Source: JAHJDO01 sp030671985 [NCBI: bacterium]
Lineage (GTDB): Bacteria > JAHJDO01
Reading direction: 5' to 3'
NCBI GenBank assembly: GCA_030671985.1
Contig: DAOVHI010000079.1
Span: 1-6,740 of the forward strand
Length of the DNA: 6,740 bases
Under the pieces are notes generated by a model. The model was not told the origin of the DNA. It saw only the letters and a list, made by a program, of their open reading frames with translations, and made no database searches. Positions within the stretch are counted from its first letter, which is position 1. Each line of letters starts with the position of its first letter. Below, piece by piece: positions 1-6,684 of this stretch. Made by a program: the position numbers and the translations under genes.

Positions 1-907
1 CAACAAACCATTTCCATTTTCCTGTTATGGTTTTTAGGCGATGAATATTTATATAATATTCTGTCTTCCCATCAAAGTGTTCTTGCAGATCAATGCTAAC
101 TTGTTTTAAATCATCAGGATGAATTTTATCTTCCCACCATTTAATATTTGGTTCCATTTCACCAAGCTTGTATCCTAAGTTTTGCGTCAGTATTTCATTA
201 TATGTTTCTTTACCAGATGGAATATCCCAATCCCACCAACCAATATTTGACCCTTGCGTTACCAGTTCTAATTGCTCAGTCTTTTGAATCAGTTTCTTTT
301 CCGCTTTCCTGCGCTCGGTGATGTCTTCGGATGTTATAATAGCGCCGCCAGAGAATGGAGCTATTACTATAGATAAAATTTTATCGTCATATTTTTGTTC
401 AGGAAACTTCTTTGGCTTGTCTAATTTGATACATTTCATCAATTCAGCATACATATCAGTCTTATGCTTTCCGGCGTAATCCTTATACATAACATCCCCA
501 ATATTGGGTAATTTATCGCCGGATTTTCTTCTTGCCAGATTGGACTTGACTACTCTTCCTTCAAGATCCACAATTGTGGTCTCTATGGGGTTGTAATTAA
601 ATAATGCCCAGTTAAACCCTTCCCTTTCCTGCAGCGTTTTTTCAGCTCGTCTTTGGGATTCTGATATCTTTCGCCCAAAGAATAATGTGATTAGTAATGT
701 GGTCAGAAAGAGCATGATATTGATTTTTAGCAGCTGCCTGACAGGTGCGTTGGTTTCAACTGCTTTACTTAATGCTTGAAATATATTAATTCCAATTTCA
801 TGACTGCAGAGATATGGGATAATATAGAATATTTGAATAATCAGTGACGCAGCTAATACTCCCACAAAAAGCAATATCAGTTTTGTTCTCCAGCTTAAGT
901 TATACAT
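1..907 (-). CDS. Membrane-anchored PAS-domain sensor protein, C-terminus beyond the window
   Basis: The ATG at 907-905 opens a frame of 302 codons that runs off the left edge, so the gene is partial. The N-terminus has two hydrophobic segments (about residues 9-33 and 61-78) separated by a short loop of about 27 residues, followed by a charged linker (about 79-97). A first PAS-like domain covers about 96-198 and ends in SEDITERRKAEKKL, the usual PAS-exit helix. A second PAS domain of the PAS_3 type starts near 212, with NIGWWDWD at 221-228 and WWEDKIHPDD at 257-266, and is cut at TGKWKWFV. Such proteins normally carry a histidine kinase, GGDEF or similar output module after the PAS repeats; which one is used here cannot be seen. 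The start overlaps the end of the upstream ORF by 13 bases. A GGAG 12 bases ahead is a distant ribosome site, so coupled translation is likely. The sensed signal is unknown. Confidence 0.8.
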   Translation of the reverse strand, partial: MYNLSWRTKLILLFVGVLAASLIIQIFYIIPYLCSHEIGINIFQALSKAVETNAPVRQLLKINIMLFLTTLLITLFFGRKISESQRRAEKTLQEREGFNWALFNYNPIETTIVDLEGRVVKSNLARRKSGDKLPNIGDVMYKDYAGKHKTDMYAELMKCIKLDKPKKFPEQKYDDKILSIVIAPFSGGAIITSEDITERRKAEKKLIQKTEQLELVTQGSNIGWWDWDIPSGKETYNEILTQNLGYKLGEMEPNIKWWEDKIHPDDLKQVSIDLQEHFDGKTEYYINIHRLKTITGKWKWFV

Positions 908-1308
908 TTGCGCGGTAAACTCCGGATATTTGATCTCAATCTGTTTCGTCCTTTATCTTTTGCTTTATACATCAGATCATCGCACTCTTTCATCAACTCA
1001 TCAATATTATTTTGATGTTTGTAATTTGTAACACCAAGACTGACTGTAATGGTCAATTCTTGAGAGCCGATCTTTATGGGTTTATGTCCAATAACAACGC
1101 TATTTGCCAGCTGCTCAATTGCTTTCTTATGCGTTTTCAAGAAGTGTCGAATATGATTTGACCTTGATTTAGCAGTTGTTTCCAGATGAGCGAATATTGC
1201 TTTTTGCAAAATGTTTCTGGCGTTAATGTAGAAACTGAACATTGTGATCGTTGTAAGCGTTACAGCTACTATTAAAAATGCCAGTCCTATTTTATCAGAT
1301 ATTTTCAT
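895..1308 (-). CDS. Chimeric remnant: sensor N-terminus fused to the C-terminal third of a GGDEF domain
   Basis: This 137-residue ORF looks like the two ends of a much larger signalling protein. Residues 1-7 are cytoplasmic, 8-28 form a transmembrane helix, and 29-72 (including HIRHFLKTHKKAIEQLA at 52-68) resemble the first helix of an extracytoplasmic dCache-type sensor domain. From about residue 75 it matches the end of a diguanylate cyclase: ELTITVSLGV (84-93), a DELMKECDDLMYKAK stretch (103-117) and KGRNRL (119-124). The GG(D/E)EF motif, its metal and GTP sites, and all intervening membrane and linker segments are absent. It therefore cannot make cyclic-di-GMP as written. The junction lies near 1080-1095 and keeps frame. 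The start overlaps the upstream dehydrogenase by 14 bases and the end overlaps the next gene by 13, so the operon arrangement survived. An in-frame internal deletion or an assembly collapse would both give this picture. A genuine small protein is less likely. Confidence 0.7.
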   Translation of the reverse strand: MKISDKIGLAFLIVAVTLTTITMFSFYINARNILQKAIFAHLETTAKSRSNHIRHFLKTHKKAIEQLANSVVIGHKPIKIGSQELTITVSLGVTNYKHQNNIDELMKECDDLMYKAKDKGRNRLRSNIRSLPRKCIT

Positions 1309-2149
1309 TTTTTCCGTATTTTCTGTTTAAATAAATGCCTGCTAAAATATCAAGCAGTTTATCAGGAAAGAAACGCTTTAGATATGCAGCGAGGTAAGCC
1401 TCTTTAGTAACCAAATATCTTATTTTTGGTCTTTTACTCTCAAGAGCACGCTTAACCTTTTTATAAAAAACGTCGGGTTCTGGAATGTTCTTTTTTGTTT
1501 CTTTTGTCTGCCTGTATTTACCCATTTTTTCGTATATATCCTTGTAACGGCTGTTATCAGGAGGATGGACTTGATTTTGAAAGATGGATAAGGCGTTTTT
1601 ACTGAAGTCGCTTTTAATAGGACCGGGTTCAATGATGCTGATTTTTATGCCTGTATTTCTAAGCTCAAGTCTCAACGCATCGGAAAGCGCTTCAAGGGCA
1701 AATTTTGATGCTGAATAAGCTCCCATAAACGGCATGCTGAATTTTCCTACGGCAGAGCTTATATTAATAATACGACCTGTTTTGTTTTTGCGGAATATCG
1801 GAATTATTTGATTGGTAAGTTCATGCACTCCAAACACATTGATTTCAAACTGGTTTCGCATAGCGTCTCTTGTTACATCCTCAAGAGCTCCGGAGTATCC
1901 GCATCCGGCATTATTGATCAGCGCATACAATTTTCCATCCGTTTTTTTGGAAACATATTTAACTAGTTTTTCAATAGAATCGGAATCTGTGACATCAAGG
2001 TAATATGTATCAATTCCTTTGCTCTTTAGATTCTCAATATCCTGTTCTTTCCTTGCAGTTGCAAATACGTTCCATCCGTTCTTTTGCAAAGATTCAGCCG
2101 TATACAATCCAAGTCCGGACGAACATCCTGTAATCAAAACGGATTTCAT
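1295..2149 (-). CDS. Short-chain dehydrogenase/reductase, 17-beta-HSD-like classical SDR
   Basis: A complete 284-residue classical SDR, predicted to be cytosolic, that oxidises or reduces a hydroxyl/carbonyl substrate with NAD(P)(H). The cofactor motif TGCSSGLG is at residues 7-14, and R33 after the second strand hints at NADP preference. NNAG is at 79-82 and the structural Asn of the tetrad is N104. The catalytic residues are S132, Y145 and K149 (AYSASKFALEAL), and EPGPIKSDF is at 174-182. The C-terminal 80 residues are basic and amphipathic, as in the cd05374-type subgroup, and may contact membrane or a hydrophobic substrate; that is inference. The substrate cannot be told from sequence. 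AAGG lies 8 bases ahead of the ATG, and the start overlaps the upstream stop as ATGA, so translation is probably coupled to the ychF-like gene. All active-site residues are present, so the enzyme should be active, unlike its two neighbours. Confidence 0.9.
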   Translation of the reverse strand: MKSVLITGCSSGLGLYTAESLQKNGWNVFATARKEQDIENLKSKGIDTYYLDVTDSDSIEKLVKYVSKKTDGKLYALINNAGCGYSGALEDVTRDAMRNQFEINVFGVHELTNQIIPIFRKNKTGRIINISSAVGKFSMPFMGAYSASKFALEALSDALRLELRNTGIKISIIEPGPIKSDFSKNALSIFQNQVHPPDNSRYKDIYEKMGKYRQTKETKKNIPEPDVFYKKVKRALESKRPKIRYLVTKEAYLAAYLKRFFPDKLLDILAGIYLNRKYGKNENI

Positions 2150-3213
2150 ACATTAAACCTTATATCAATTATATCTCCGTCTTCTACAATATAATCTTTG
2201 CCTTTAACATAGCATTTCCCGGCTTCTTTTACTTTTGCCTCTGCGCCAAAAGACACTAAATTTTCGTATTTAATAACCTGTGCTCTTATAAAGCCGCGCT
2301 GTAGATCTGTGTGAATCACGCCTGCCGCTTCAGGAGCAGTGGAATTTTTCCTAATCATCCATTCCCGAACTTCATCTTTGCCCACAGTAAAGAACGATAT
2401 TAGACCCAATGTCTTATAAAAGCATCTTGTCAGAGCGTTGACTGCCGGTTCTTCTATCCCAAGTTCAGAAAGAAAGTCTTTTTGCTCTTCTTCCGGAAGA
2501 GAGGCTATTTCTGATTCTATCTTGGCAGAAACCTGCATCACTCCAATTTTCTGCTTCTCGTATTTTTGCTTTACAGAGTCAAGAAGATTCGTATCCTTTA
2601 TATCTTCTTCTCCAATATTCAAAGCTATTACTATCGGTTTCATGGAAATAAACTGATACGCTAATATGAGTTTTTTTTCTTCCTCGCTAAGAGACATGGT
2701 TCTGAGAGGCAGTTCTTTCTCTAGATGGACTTTTAGTTTTGAAAGGATTTCTTTATCTTTTTCTTTCGCTGTATCTTTTTTTCTTGAAAGGTCTTTATCT
2801 ATTCTCTCAAGTCTCTTTTCTATAAATATCATATCATTCAAAATCAGTTCAGAATTAACTGTGTCTATATCCCGAATGGGATCAATTGACCCGTCAACAT
2901 GATAAACCGATTCGTCTTTAAATGAGCGGACTATATGGCAGAGCGCATCCACATCTGCTATCTTCGTAAAGATATCTCCGCTTGATACTGTTTCTTTTTC
3001 TATCTTAGGGAGGAGCGATATGTCTATTGTTGCAGGAACCTCGCTTTTTGGTGAATACATGGAAACAAGTTTGTCAAATCTAGGATCCTTTACGCTAACA
3101 ATGCCTGGAATTATGTCTTTTGAATTATCCGGCATTTTGGATTTTTGTTGTGTCAGAATTTTAAATAGAATCTTCTTCCCGACCTGAGGAAGCCCTATGA
3201 TTCCTATTTTCAT
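2146..3213 (-). CDS. YchF/Obg-type GTPase homologue (DUF933/TGS C-terminus) with a degenerate nucleotide-binding core
   Basis: 355 residues, close to the roughly 363 of E. coli YchF and collinear with it. The C-terminus is well conserved: ISFFTVGKDEVREW (272-285), TAPEAAG (292-298), IHTDLQRGFIRAQ (300-312), EAGK (330-333) and KDYIVEDGDIIDIRFNV at the end, which together form the TGS/DUF933 domain. Residues about 127-170 form a charged helical hairpin, as in YchF. The G-domain is eroded. The P-loop reads GLPQVGKK (7-14) where the family has GLPNVGKST, so the Mg-binding Ser is Lys. The DIAG switch II motif and its glycine-rich follow-on are absent around 65-85. The switch I Thr is gone. Only NIGE (199-202) keeps the YchF-style NxxE. 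YchF is a ribosome-associated ATPase; this protein may bind nucleotide poorly or not at all. The start at 3213 was chosen over an in-frame ATG at 3273 because it aligns with YchF N-termini and the upstream one lies within the promoter region. Confidence 0.85.
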   Translation of the reverse strand: MKIGIIGLPQVGKKILFKILTQQKSKMPDNSKDIIPGIVSVKDPRFDKLVSMYSPKSEVPATIDISLLPKIEKETVSSGDIFTKIADVDALCHIVRSFKDESVYHVDGSIDPIRDIDTVNSELILNDMIFIEKRLERIDKDLSRKKDTAKEKDKEILSKLKVHLEKELPLRTMSLSEEEKKLILAYQFISMKPIVIALNIGEEDIKDTNLLDSVKQKYEKQKIGVMQVSAKIESEIASLPEEEQKDFLSELGIEEPAVNALTRCFYKTLGLISFFTVGKDEVREWMIRKNSTAPEAAGVIHTDLQRGFIRAQVIKYENLVSFGAEAKVKEAGKCYVKGKDYIVEDGDIIDIRFNV

Positions 3214-3323: not shown

Positions 3324-4517
3324 GTGAATTCATATATCAAACCGGCTGAGAGAACAAAAAAGATTAAATATGCAGTTAGGGATATCATGCTAATAGTCGA
3401 AAAGGCAGCCTCTCATGGCAAGGAGATGCTTTATCTCAACATAGGCGACCCGATAAAATCCGATTTTAAAACGCCTCGTCATATTGTTGAGGCTGCATGC
3501 AATGCAATGAAGAATGGATTTACCGGATACTCTCCGTCATCCGGTATTGATGAGGCAATTGAAGCCGTCAAGAATGAAGCTGGCAGAAAAGGAATACGTA
3601 ATATTCAGGACATTTTTATCTCGAATGGAGGAAGCGAAGCTATTGAAATAGCATTAACAAGTCTTGTGAATCCCGATGAGAATGTGTTAGTTCCTTCACC
3701 CGGCTATCCGTTGTACACAGCAGTGCTGACAAAGCTTGGCGCGGGAATCAATCCATATTATCTGGATGAGGAGAATGACTGGCAGCCTGATATTAATGAC
3801 ATAAAAAGCAAAATAGATAAAAATACAAGAGCAATTATCCTTATAAATCCCAATAATCCGACAGGCGCAGTTTACACAAGAGAAACTCTTACCAAGATTG
3901 TTGATATTGCTCTTGAGCATAACCTCGTAATATTTTCCGATGAGATATATGACAAACTTGTTTTTGATGCTGAGGAGCATATCTCTACTGCCTGCATCTC
4001 AAAAGAAGCGTCTGTTCTTACTTTTGGCGGGCTTTCAAAGTCCTATCTGTCTCCGGGTCTGCGTATCGGATGGTGCGTTGTAAGCGGCAAAGAGGAGAAT
4101 TTGGGAGACTATTACAGAGCTATGCAGAAACTAACACGGGCAAGACTCTGCGCAAATCATCCTGAACAATACGCAATAAAGCCGGCTTTAGAGGGAGATC
4201 AATCACATATAAAAGAAGCAAATACAAAGCTTAAACAAAGAGCGGATATTACATACCAAATGCTCAATACTATTCCGAACATCAGCTGTGTAAAACCAAG
4301 GGGAGCTTTTTATGCGTTTCCTAAAATAGATGTAGCAGTATCGGACCTGAAATTTGTTTCTGATCTAATCTATGAAACAGGCGTTGTTGTTGTCCATGGC
4401 GGGGGATTTGGTCAAAAACAGGGAACAAAACATTTCAGGATTGTTTTCTTGCCGGAAGAGAATGTCTTAAGAGAGGCGTATGAAAAGATTGGGCAATTCA
4501 TGACCAGGTATGAATAG
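3324..4517 (+). CDS. alaA: PLP-dependent class I/II aminotransferase, AlaA-type (alanine/aspartate aminotransferase)
   Basis: A complete 397-residue fold-type I aminotransferase, predicted to be cytosolic, that moves an amino group between an amino acid and a 2-oxo acid (typically pyruvate/alanine with glutamate/2-oxoglutarate). LNIGDP is at 38-43 and [11 protein letters not shown] at 101-111. [11 protein letters not shown] (174-184) supplies the PLP-contacting Asn178, and SDEIYDKL (205-212) holds Asp206, which pairs with the pyridine nitrogen. GGLSKSY (235-241) contains the Schiff-base Lys239. HFRIVFLP (370-377) has Arg372, the substrate carboxylate clamp. [12 protein letters not shown] (274-285) and [16 protein letters not shown] (321-336) closely resemble E. 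coli AlaA and Pyrococcus alanine aminotransferase as I remember them, rather than generic AspC. The start is GTG with a strong ribosome site. It leads a two-gene block with uvrA, which overlaps its last 8 bases. Exact substrate choice is not proven by sequence; aspartate is the main alternative. Confidence 0.88.
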
Positions 4518-6684
4518 CAACAGTATAATAATCAAGGGCGCCCGCCAGCATAATCTTAAAAACATAGATCTGGAAATTCCGCGAAACAAACTTGTTGTTA
4601 TTACAGGTTTGAGCGGTTCGGGAAAATCCTCTCTGGCTTTTGATACCATCTATGCGGAGGGACAGAGAAGGTATGTAGAAAGCCTGTCTTCTTATGCGCG
4701 TCAGTTTCTTGAACAGATGGATAAACCTGATGTTGACTATATTGGCGGACTTTCTCCTGCTATCTCTATTGAACAAAGAACCTCTGCAAGAAATCCACGT
4801 TCAACAGTCGGAACGGTAACAGAGATATATGATTATCTAAGAGTATTGTTTTCGCGAATAGGTGAAGTGTCCTGCTATAAATGCGGAAGAGCAATTAAAC
4901 GTCAAACTTCCCAGCAAATCGTTGACAAGATTATGAAGCTCCCTCAGTCTTCTAAAATTATGCTTATGTCTCCAATGGTAAGAGGAAGGAAAGGGGAATA
5001 TAGCGCGCTTTTTGAAGATATAGAAAAAAAGGGATTTGTAAGACTCAGAGTTGATGGGAACATCCATAATGTGGAAGACGAGATAAAACTCAATAAAAAC
5101 AAAAAACACAACATTGAAGTTGTTGTGGACAGACTTGTTGCAAAACCGGATATCAAATCACGGCTTACTGATTCTGTAGAAACCGCTCTGAAACTGGGTG
5201 AAGGCTTAATTTTGGTATGTGTTGACGATAAGAAAGATATCCTGTTCAGTGAGCATTTTGCGTGTATTAAGTGCGAAATAAATTACTCTGAATTCACACC
5301 TCGTATGTTCTCATTCAACAGTCCATACGGCGCATGCAAAACATGTAACGGACTAGGCAGAAAGATGGAGGTTGATCCTGACCTGATCGTACCTGATAAA
5401 AATTTATCCATCAATGAAGGCGCAATTGTCTCATGGAGTGATCCGATAACAACAAGACGCCATCGCTGGAAAGCAGCAACAAAAAGATATTTGTTTCAGA
5501 TGCTGGAGACAGTTGCCGATTACTATAATATAGACCTTGATGCGCCATTTAAGAATTTGAGCAAAGACCATCGAAATATGATTCTATACGGCACAGAGGA
5601 AAAACTGGATTTTAAATTGCGGCTCAGACGCAGGATACACAAACACAGAATGAAATTTGAGGGAGTAATTAACAACCTTGAGAGAAGATGGAGCCAAACT
5701 GATTCTGAATATGTAAAGTCGGAAATCTACAATAAATACATGAGAGTCAGATTATGTCCCGAATGCAAAGGCGCAAGGCTTTCCCCTCAGAGTCTTGCTG
5801 TAACGATCAATAAGAAATCAATAGCGAAAATATGTTCTTTATCAATCAAATCCGCTGTCCGATTCTTTAATAATTTACGTTTGGGCAAAACGGAAAAACT
5901 TATTGCGCGTGATATCTTAAAAGAAGTCAGTAACCGATTAGGATTTCTCTCAAATGTAGGACTTGACTATATTACCCTAGACAGAACAGCGCAGACCCTT
6001 TCAGGAGGAGAAGGAGAGAGGATCAGGCTTGCTACACAAATTGGTTCAAGTCTTGTGGGGGTATTGTATGTTCTAGACGAACCAAGTATTGGGCTTCACC
6101 AGAGAGATAATACTAAATTATTAAAAACATTAACAAGTTTGCGCGATCTTGGAAATACGGTTATTGTCGTAGAACATGACGAACAAACAATAAGGAATGC
6201 GGATTATGTGATAGATCTTGGTCCCGGAGCCGGCATTCACGGCGGTCGTCTTGTAGCGTGCGGCAGGCCGGAAGAAATAATTAAAAACAAGCGTTCTATT
6301 ACAGGTAAATATTTGTCAGGAGAAGTCAAGATTAATGTACCTAAACAAAGAAGAAAACCAACTGAAAAACAGCTTAAAATACTTGGGGCATGTGAACATA
6401 ATTTAAAAAAGATAAACGTAAATATTCCTCTAGGATTATTAGTCTGTATTTCAGGAGTATCCGGCTCCGGTAAGAGCACGCTGGTTGACGAAACACTATA
6501 TAGAGCACTGGCTCAAACGCTGTACGGTTCAAAAGAAAAGCCGGGTAAACATGTTGACATTAAAGGTTTTTCTCAAATAGATAAAGTTGCAAACATTACT
6601 CAGTCGCCAATAGGCAGAACCCCTCGATCTAATCCTGCTACATATACTCCAGTTCTATCCTGGCAGGATGTCCAGTTTTGTTGA
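4510..6684 (+). CDS. uvrA: UvrA, excinuclease ABC subunit A, C-terminally truncated
   Basis: UvrA is the cytosolic damage-recognition ATPase of nucleotide excision repair; it loads UvrB onto lesions. This frame has 724 residues, against about 940 for full-length UvrA. Module I is complete: Walker [10 protein letters not shown] (33-41), the [24 protein letters not shown] region, CxxC pairs at 122/125, 252/255, 276/279 and 416/419 for zinc, the signature LSGGEGER (497-504; the usual form is LSGGEAQR), Walker B VLYVLDEP with D523 and E524, and switch His556. The second Walker [10 protein letters not shown] is at 649-657. Similarity holds through [16 protein letters not shown] (698-713), then an unrelated 11-residue tail ends at a TGA. 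Zinc module CPxC, signature II and Walker B II are missing, so the product should be unable to form ATP site pairs. The ATG overlaps the aminotransferase stop by 8 bases and lacks a good ribosome site, implying coupled translation. Confidence 0.9.
6648..6677. repeat. 7-bp direct repeat flanking a perfect palindrome at the uvrA break
   Basis: TCCAGTT occurs at 6648-6654 and again at 6671-6677. Between the copies, ATCCTG (6657-6662), a single G, and CAGGAT (6664-6669) make a perfect palindrome with 6-base arms. The first copy begins at the last base of the final UvrA-like codon (Thr713). This could be the edge of a small mobile element, a recombination junction, or a chimeric assembly join. Confidence 0.6.

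What the first reader, a model, noticed from the sequence alone, without database searches (positions are those of the whole stretch)
2911..3213. YchF-family protein whose GTPase motifs are eroded while its TGS/DUF933 end is conserved
Seen: the P-loop is GLPQVGKK instead of GLPNVGKST, the DIAG switch II segment and its glycine-rich loop are absent, and the switch I Thr is lost. The C-terminal domain and NxxE are near-canonical and the frame is intact over 355 codons. Known: YchF is an Obg-family ATPase that works with ribosomes. Inference: a pseudo-GTPase that kept ribosome or partner binding, or a separate DUF933 subfamily with a different nucleotide mode. Its place at the head of a dehydrogenase and signalling operon, rather than beside pth as is common for ychF, supports a divergent role.
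Basis: partly seen in the sequence, partly recalled or inferred. Interest (0 to 1): 0.6.

Follow-up and report, generated by a model that had tools for sequence, protein, structure and literature searches.

The report
YchF with a dismantled ATPase site
A ribosome-associated protein that most life keeps as an ATP-burning switch has, in this lineage of uncultured bacteria, kept its shape but lost the parts needed to burn ATP, and some related bacteria have deleted the ATP-binding part altogether.

Summary
The window's 355-aa YchF (2149-3213, minus) has GLPQVGKK for the P-loop and no switch I Thr, DxxG or glycine-rich loop. It is the only DUF933 gene in its genome; three other genomes of its genus also have just one. 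The gene is under purifying selection, including over residues 1-85. Thirty-nine such proteins, 35 of them from the Omnitrophota phylum group, form one clade (SH-aLRT 98). In all 39 the Mg2+-ligand Ser/Thr has become Lys, Arg or His; a wider draw adds one Glu. Of residues conserved in canonical relatives, 0 of 7 in switch I and 0 of 14 in switch II are kept, while 8 nucleotide-contact positions I listed stay at least 90% conserved. In Omnitrophota, 70 of 134 genomes with a DUF933 gene carry as single copy only this form or a 224-255 aa form lacking P-loop, switches and NxxE region. Best reading: a non-hydrolysing pseudo-ATPase, still folded like YchF (pLDDT 87), probably an un-switched ribosome or RNA binder. 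New variant of a known kind; no biochemistry was found.

The parts
2149..3213 (-). basic-P-loop YchF-like protein, 355 aa
3172..3195 (-). P-loop GLPQVGKK (residues 7-14); residue 14 is Lys in place of the Mg2+-ligand Ser/Thr, residue 10 Gln in place of Asn
3094..3135 (-). switch I region (residues 27-40); canonical-invariant residues lost (0 of 7 kept across the clade)
2962..3030 (-). switch II region (residues 62-84); DxxG and glycine-rich loop lost (0 of 14 canonical-invariant residues kept across the clade)
2899..2901 (-). His105, counterpart of the loop His of canonical YchF; His in 39 of 39 basic-clade rows
2656..2853 (-). helical (coiled-coil) domain, residues about 121-186
2608..2619 (-). 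G4 motif NxxE as NIGE (residues 199-202), kept
2515..2529 (-). G5-like SAKIE (residues 229-233), kept
2152..2403 (-). TGS/DUF933 domain (PF06071)
1295..2149 (-). SDR-family dehydrogenase; its start overlaps the stop of the ychF-like gene; the SDR follows directly in the 4 genus loci and lies nearby in L121

Best explanation
The gene encodes the only YchF found in its genome, turned into a pseudo-ATPase. Shown by sequence: the Mg2+-coordinating Ser/Thr of the P-loop is a basic residue, the P-loop Asn is Gln, and switch I, DxxG and the glycine-rich loop are gone, while GxxxxGK, NxxE, SAK and the loop His are conserved under purifying selection and the YchF fold is predicted intact. Inferred: it no longer hydrolyses ATP and has no ATP/ADP conformational switch. 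The added Lys probably neutralises phosphates in place of Mg2+, so that a nucleotide, if bound, stays bound and holds the G domain in one state. The protein then works as a constitutive ribosome or RNA binder through the helical domain, TGS domain and G-domain surface. That the nucleotide site can be dispensed with is suggested by Omnitrophota genomes whose only DUF933 protein found lacks it.
For: One DUF933 gene in the own genome, in 3 further genus genomes and in 5 named Omnitrophota genomes. dN/dS 0.12-0.19 over the gene and 0.10-0.23 over residues 1-85 in six genus pairs. One clade: 100/100 for 9 rows (bootstrap not fully settled), SH-aLRT 98 for 39 rows. Residue 14 is K33, R4, H2 of 39; residue 10 is Gln in 36 of 39; His105 and N199 39 of 39; residue 202 E37/D2. 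Canonical-invariant residues kept (same residue, at least 90%): switch I 0/7, switch II 0/14, P-loop 6/9, G4-G5 6/9, TGS 24/33; 8 of 8 contact positions that I listed are at least 90% conserved against 37 of 179 G-domain columns. Pairwise identity is 0.81 in the P-loop but 0.36 and 0.45 in switch I and II (canonical 0.91, 0.73, 0.75). The short form is the only DUF933 gene in 42 of 134 genomes; EF-G is the same-strand neighbour within 200 nt in 28 of 42 short loci. Model pLDDT 87.2; best match 8kie, YchF with the 50S subunit, TM 0.90.
Against: The conserved loop His and contact residues would also fit a degenerate but active enzyme. My list of 8 contact positions comes from family knowledge and leaves out the changed positions 10 and 14; at 230 the clade has Ala where canonical rows mostly have Gly. 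Canonical-invariant residues are lost elsewhere too (rest of residues 1-120 keep 7 of 21, helical domain 4 of 9), so part of the change is general divergence. One wider relative (L220) has Glu at the Ser/Thr position. Three Omnitrophota genomes have a canonical copy beside the basic one. The Omnitrophota genomes were only required to be 80% complete, so some canonical copies may be missed. In E. coli the N-terminal ATPase domain is reported as the main ribosome contact (PMC8779481 section 2; PMC8138138 passages), which weakens the claim that helical plus TGS domains suffice.
Confidence: 0.7

Rival explanations
1. Degenerate but active NTPase: Lys14, Lys70 and the conserved His make a re-tooled site that hydrolyses nucleotide by another route, for instance when bound to the ribosome.
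For: His105 in 39 of 39; GK, NxxE and SAK conserved; residue 70 (the DxxG Gly position in the alignment) is Lys or Arg in 32 of 39.
Against: Mg2+ ligand, P-loop Asn, switch I and DxxG all lost; E. coli P11/N12 variants are described as ATPase-deficient (passage of PMC8138138).
Confidence: 0.12
2. The nucleotide site is dead and binds nothing; P-loop conservation reflects folding or an RNA or protein contact at that surface.
For: The short clade lacks the P-loop in 42 of 42 rows yet keeps the TGS core; a basic P-loop could touch rRNA.
Against: P-loop and G4/G5 contact positions, distant in sequence, are conserved together in the basic clade (8 of 8 listed).
Confidence: 0.3
3. Sequencing error, assembly error or a decaying pseudogene.
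For: Single short MAG contig.
Against: Same residues in four genus genomes and a basic residue in 35 further rows; intact frame; dN/dS well below 1.
Confidence: 0.01
4. Ordinary paralogue beside a canonical ychF that the incomplete assembly missed.
For: G000 is 92% complete; 3 of 134 Omnitrophota genomes have both a canonical and a basic copy.
Against: No second DUF933 gene in any of 4 genus genomes of 90-96% completeness or 5 named Omnitrophota genomes.
Confidence: 0.04

Closest known systems
YchF/OLA1 (TIGR00092, Obg-family ATPase of the TRAFAC class)
   Same: Full-length homology (33-42% identity to canonical rows), helical domain, TGS/DUF933, NxxE, loop His, predicted fold (Z 35.5 to 8kie).
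   Different: Ser/Thr Mg2+ ligand replaced by a basic residue, P-loop Asn by Gln, switch I and DxxG absent. The window protein and all 6 named relatives tested still pass the TIGR00092 cut-off (280.8-311 bits against 279.2), so annotation by that model would call them redox-regulated ATPases; 4 of 4 short forms tested fall below it.
PseudoGTPase domains such as those of p190RhoGAP (PMC5593906; only the start of the abstract was seen)
   Same: GTPase-like fold; that its catalytic motifs are lost is recalled.
   Different: Different family; here the protein takes the place of the only copy of a widely conserved translation-linked ATPase in bacteria.
Variant bacterial YchF with GKS/T but altered switch II (for example L041, L050, L063)
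   Same: Often the only full-length YchF match in its genome; switch II changed. G046 has such a variant beside a canonical copy.
   Different: They keep the Ser/Thr and, in many, a DxxG-like sequence; the relation to the basic clade is unresolved.

Membership tests
YchF/OLA1 (TIGR00092) | Full-length match over the curated score | tested here: met
   311 bits against a cut-off of 279.2
YchF/OLA1 (TIGR00092) | G domain, helical domain, TGS order and fold | tested here: met
   Model pLDDT 87.2; 8kie TM 0.90, Z 35.5; the alignment held 16 canonical relatives
YchF/OLA1 (TIGR00092) | NxxE in place of NKxD | tested here: met
   NIGE at residues 199-202
Functional Obg-family P-loop ATPase | GxxxxGK[ST] P-loop with Mg2+-ligand Ser/Thr | tested here: not met
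   GLPQVGKK; K, R or H in 39 of 39 clade rows
Functional Obg-family P-loop ATPase | Switch I Thr and DxxG switch II | tested here: not met
   Absent in the window protein; 0 of 7 and 0 of 14 canonical-invariant residues kept in the clade
Functional Obg-family P-loop ATPase | ATP hydrolysis | not testable with these tools
   Needs purified protein
PseudoGTPase (functional class) | GTPase fold, catalytic motifs lost, protein under selection | tested here: met
PseudoGTPase (functional class) | No hydrolysis; nucleotide binding present or absent | not testable with these tools
   Needs purified protein

The most novel reading that the evidence does not exclude
A metal-free nucleotide site: in this clade a basic residue at the Mg2+-ligand position (with Lys or Arg usually at the DxxG Gly position) stands in for Mg2+, so that YchF holds ATP, ADP or a ppGpp-like ligand permanently as a structural cofactor or as a ligand sensor on the ribosome. 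In Omnitrophota YchF would thus have been taken apart in steps, from ATPase to locked binder to G-domain-deleted adaptor, showing that its ancestral role does not need ATP turnover.
Probability: 0.3. Interest if true: 0.78.

Novelty: new variant of a known kind. Interest (0 to 1): 0.58.

Why it matters
YchF/OLA1 is described as universally conserved, yet its role and its need for ATP turnover remain unsettled. A lineage in which the only copy found has lost the catalytic and switch residues, and another in which the nucleotide site is deleted, are natural separation-of-function forms. Expressing them in a laboratory E. coli lacking ychF would show which phenotypes need ATP. It also shows that the curated model TIGR00092 would name likely non-ATPases as ATPases (7 of 7 basic-clade proteins tested pass it).

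Tried and rejected
Sequencing error: rejected by recurrence. Hidden second ychF: none found. Structure from 7 close sequences alone: poor (pLDDT 44), not used. Scans of viral contigs with the window protein and with a variant YchF found no relative. Pocket geometry: model coordinates are not in the Python box, so not measured. A species tree to test whether each class is vertically inherited was not made. The places of the basic and short clades relative to canonical YchF rest on a quick tree over 233 shared columns, rooted at the midpoint for drawing only, so the order of events is inferred. In the 289-genome draw only the 30 best loci were read for motifs (26 after the genus, some repeating earlier loci), so the true spread of basic forms outside Omnitrophota is unknown; 3 of 16 genomes looked at again have no DUF933 hit.

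Papers. Searches: YchF, ribosome and ATPase 86 papers, 25 listed, none of the listed titles on such forms; YchF with pseudo-GTPase 0; YchF with DUF933 0; YchF with H114A 0; Omnitrophota with YchF 1 (passages); pseudoGTPase with Mg2+, nucleotide binding and P-loop 3 (listing); Obg-like ATPase with cryo-EM 1 (listing); pseudo-GTPase with bacterial and ribosome 2 (listing); YchF with degenerate and Walker A 1, a review of Era (listing only). The library lacks most subscription papers.

Rows dropped before counts: six repeats of one gene under other handles (L001, L040, L066, L067, L068, L069); L070-L075, repeats of L032-L037; L211, a frameshifted canonical copy, not joined; L058, L062 and L065 (partial) from the first tree; five fragments (L078b, L083b, L087, L165, L179) from the second tree. 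L032 and G004 are the same contig, and G059 the same genome as G004. Neighbourhood counts used 114 loci: all 42 short rows, 33 of 39 basic and 27 of 51 canonical, because the other stretches are under 4.5 kb.

Full report
What is there. The window holds one YchF-like gene on the minus strand, 2149-3213, 355 codons from ATG without an internal stop. It matches TIGR00092 (redox-regulated ATPase YchF) at 311 bits against a cut-off of 279.2 and Pfam DUF933 at E 1.4e-37, but no Pfam G-domain model at E up to 0.001; the canonical L002 protein scores E 1.5e-23 with MMR_HSR1. Its best PDB sequence matches are 1jal and 8kie. The P-loop is GLPQVGKK; the switch I segment, DIAG and the glycine-rich loop are replaced; NIGE, SAK and the loop His remain.

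Is it real? The window is contig C43 of a 1.25-Mb, 92% complete genome with exactly one DUF933 hit. Its phylum is represented in the held set by one genus of five genomes. The four of 90-96% completeness have one DUF933 gene each, and G001 (62%) has none. All four genes read GLPQVGKK. Pairwise dN/dS is 0.12-0.19 for the whole gene and 0.10-0.23 for residues 1-85 over six pairs; the highest regional value is 0.32, for residues 86-120 in one pair. The altered site is under purifying selection.

A clade, not an oddity. Five named Candidatus Omnitrophota genomes carry the closest relatives found outside the genus (55-60% identity), each with a single DUF933 copy. I then searched 145 genomes of the phylum group of L033's genome, asked to be at least 80% complete: 134 have a DUF933 gene. 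I fetched the places in all 134 and classed them by motif. As single copies: 44 canonical (GKS/T with D[IV]AG), 42 short, 28 basic, 5 GKT with DIPG, 5 GKT/S without DxxG, 2 truncated, 1 frameshifted canonical. With two copies: 3 canonical plus basic, 2 canonical plus fragment, 1 double canonical, 1 basic plus fragment. So 70 of 134 have only a basic or a short form, as a single copy. In a tree on 233 shared columns the 39 basic rows are one clade (SH-aLRT 98), the 42 short rows one clade (99) and the 51 canonical rows one clade (95); the window's genus lies inside the basic clade.

What was lost and what was kept. In the 39 basic rows the Ser/Thr position is K33, R4, H2; residue 10 is Gln in 36; His105 is 39 of 39; N199 39 of 39; residue 202 is E37/D2. 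A wider draw of 289 bacterial genomes, of which only the 30 best loci were read, added four GKK rows (L216, L217, L218, L225), one GKH (L221) and one GKE (L220), the last an exception to the basic rule. Of residues at least 90% conserved in the 51 canonical rows, the basic clade keeps at 90% or more 0 of 7 in switch I, 0 of 14 in switch II, 6 of 9 in the P-loop, 6 of 9 around G4-G5 and 24 of 33 in TGS, but also only 7 of 21 in the rest of residues 1-120 and 4 of 9 in the helical domain. Eight of eight contact positions (7, 12, 13, 199, 202, 229, 230, 231; chosen by me from family knowledge, leaving out the changed 10 and 14) are at least 90% conserved, against 37 of 179 G-domain columns. So the parts that grip a nucleotide are largely kept and the parts that coordinate Mg2+, sense the gamma phosphate and switch are gone. 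YchF is listed among K+-dependent P-loop NTPases (passages of PMC6310460); that the P-loop Asn is the K+ ligand is recalled. E. coli P11/N12 variants are described as ATPase-deficient (passage of PMC8138138); from the ranges these correspond to Pro9 and Gln10 here, and S16 to Lys14.

The end of the road. The short form (224-255 aa) keeps the first strand, a stretch like GKHNVKDPRLD, the helical domain in part and the TGS core, but lacks the P-loop, switch I, switch II and the NxxE/SAK region. At least six genomes of the wider draw also have such frames (229-256 aa). EF-G occurs in the same stretch in 29 of 42 short loci and is the same-strand neighbour within 200 nt in 28; PurH occurs in 33, FolC in 36 and MnmE in 35 (names from one representative locus, L190). 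EF-G is in 0 of 27 canonical and 1 of 33 basic loci examined. This ties the short form loosely to translation, but operon context is weak evidence. The window's gene instead overlaps an SDR dehydrogenase, as in the other genus loci; in L038 and L039 a 148-aa RF-1-domain protein follows on the other strand.

Fold. With 23 sequences (7 basic, and 16 from viral contigs records, of which all 16 show DIAG and 15 GLPNVGKST, the other starting after the P-loop) AlphaFold2 gives pLDDT 87.2 and pTM 0.82. Foldseek's first match is 8kie, YchF with the 50S subunit (TM 0.90, 37% identity), and AtYchF1 with ppGpp is second. VIA-align gives Z 33.0-35.9 to the eleven YchF/OLA1 entries listed and 19.8 or less below them. 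With canonical sequences in the alignment this tests the fold, not the pocket.

How it works. Shown: a single-copy, selected YchF that lacks Mg2+-ligand and switch residues. Inferred: no hydrolysis (about 0.85); ribosome or RNA binding kept (about 0.7; the literature describes a positively charged helical-TGS cleft, but also names the ATPase domain as the main ribosome contact, PMC8779481 section 2); nucleotide still bound, without Mg2+ (about 0.5). I commit to a non-hydrolysing, un-switched ribosome or RNA binder, with the basic residue as the likely stand-in for Mg2+.

Novelty. Searches naming YchF with pseudo-GTPase, DUF933 or H114A returned 0 papers; with degenerate and Walker A, 1 (an Era review, listing only); Omnitrophota with YchF, 1, whose passages report fewer ribosome biogenesis factors in that phylum and call YchF broadly conserved. 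I saw no description of these forms. It is a new variant of a known family, and a natural test of whether YchF needs ATP.

Noticed in passing
window 4510-6684 (+): UvrA frame stops after 724 aa although the UvrA model runs to 943; it matches model positions 3-709 and ends 56 bases before the contig end, so probably a contig-end artefact.
   Followed up: no
window 895-1308 (-): A 137-aa ORF with a membrane-like start and only the last third of a GGDEF domain (profile 98-161 of 161); looks like a remnant of an internal deletion.
   Followed up: no
42 short loci among L134-L210: G-domain-deleted DUF933 proteins in the Omnitrophota group, mostly in an EF-G - short YchF - PurH - FolC - MnmE neighbourhood.
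   Followed up: partly
L038 7822-8265 (-), L039 2109-2552 (-): A 148-aa RF-1-domain protein (perhaps a ribosome-rescue factor) lies convergent to the ychF-SDR pair in two genus genomes.
   Followed up: partly
L041-L061 and other variant loci: Many unnamed bacterial families have, as their only full-length YchF match, a YchF with GKS/T but altered switch II.
   Followed up: partly
L292, L293, L295: Further odd DUF933 frames: 308 and 316 aa with a P-loop but no clear NxxE region, and one of 314 aa in which I see no P-loop.
   Followed up: no
L057 4196-6652 (+): A YchF-like match inside an 819-aa open frame, perhaps a fusion or only a long open frame.
   Followed up: no
G395:C1:818375-819460: YchF-like match with 2 in-frame TGA, as in a genome that reads TGA as a residue.
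   Followed up: no
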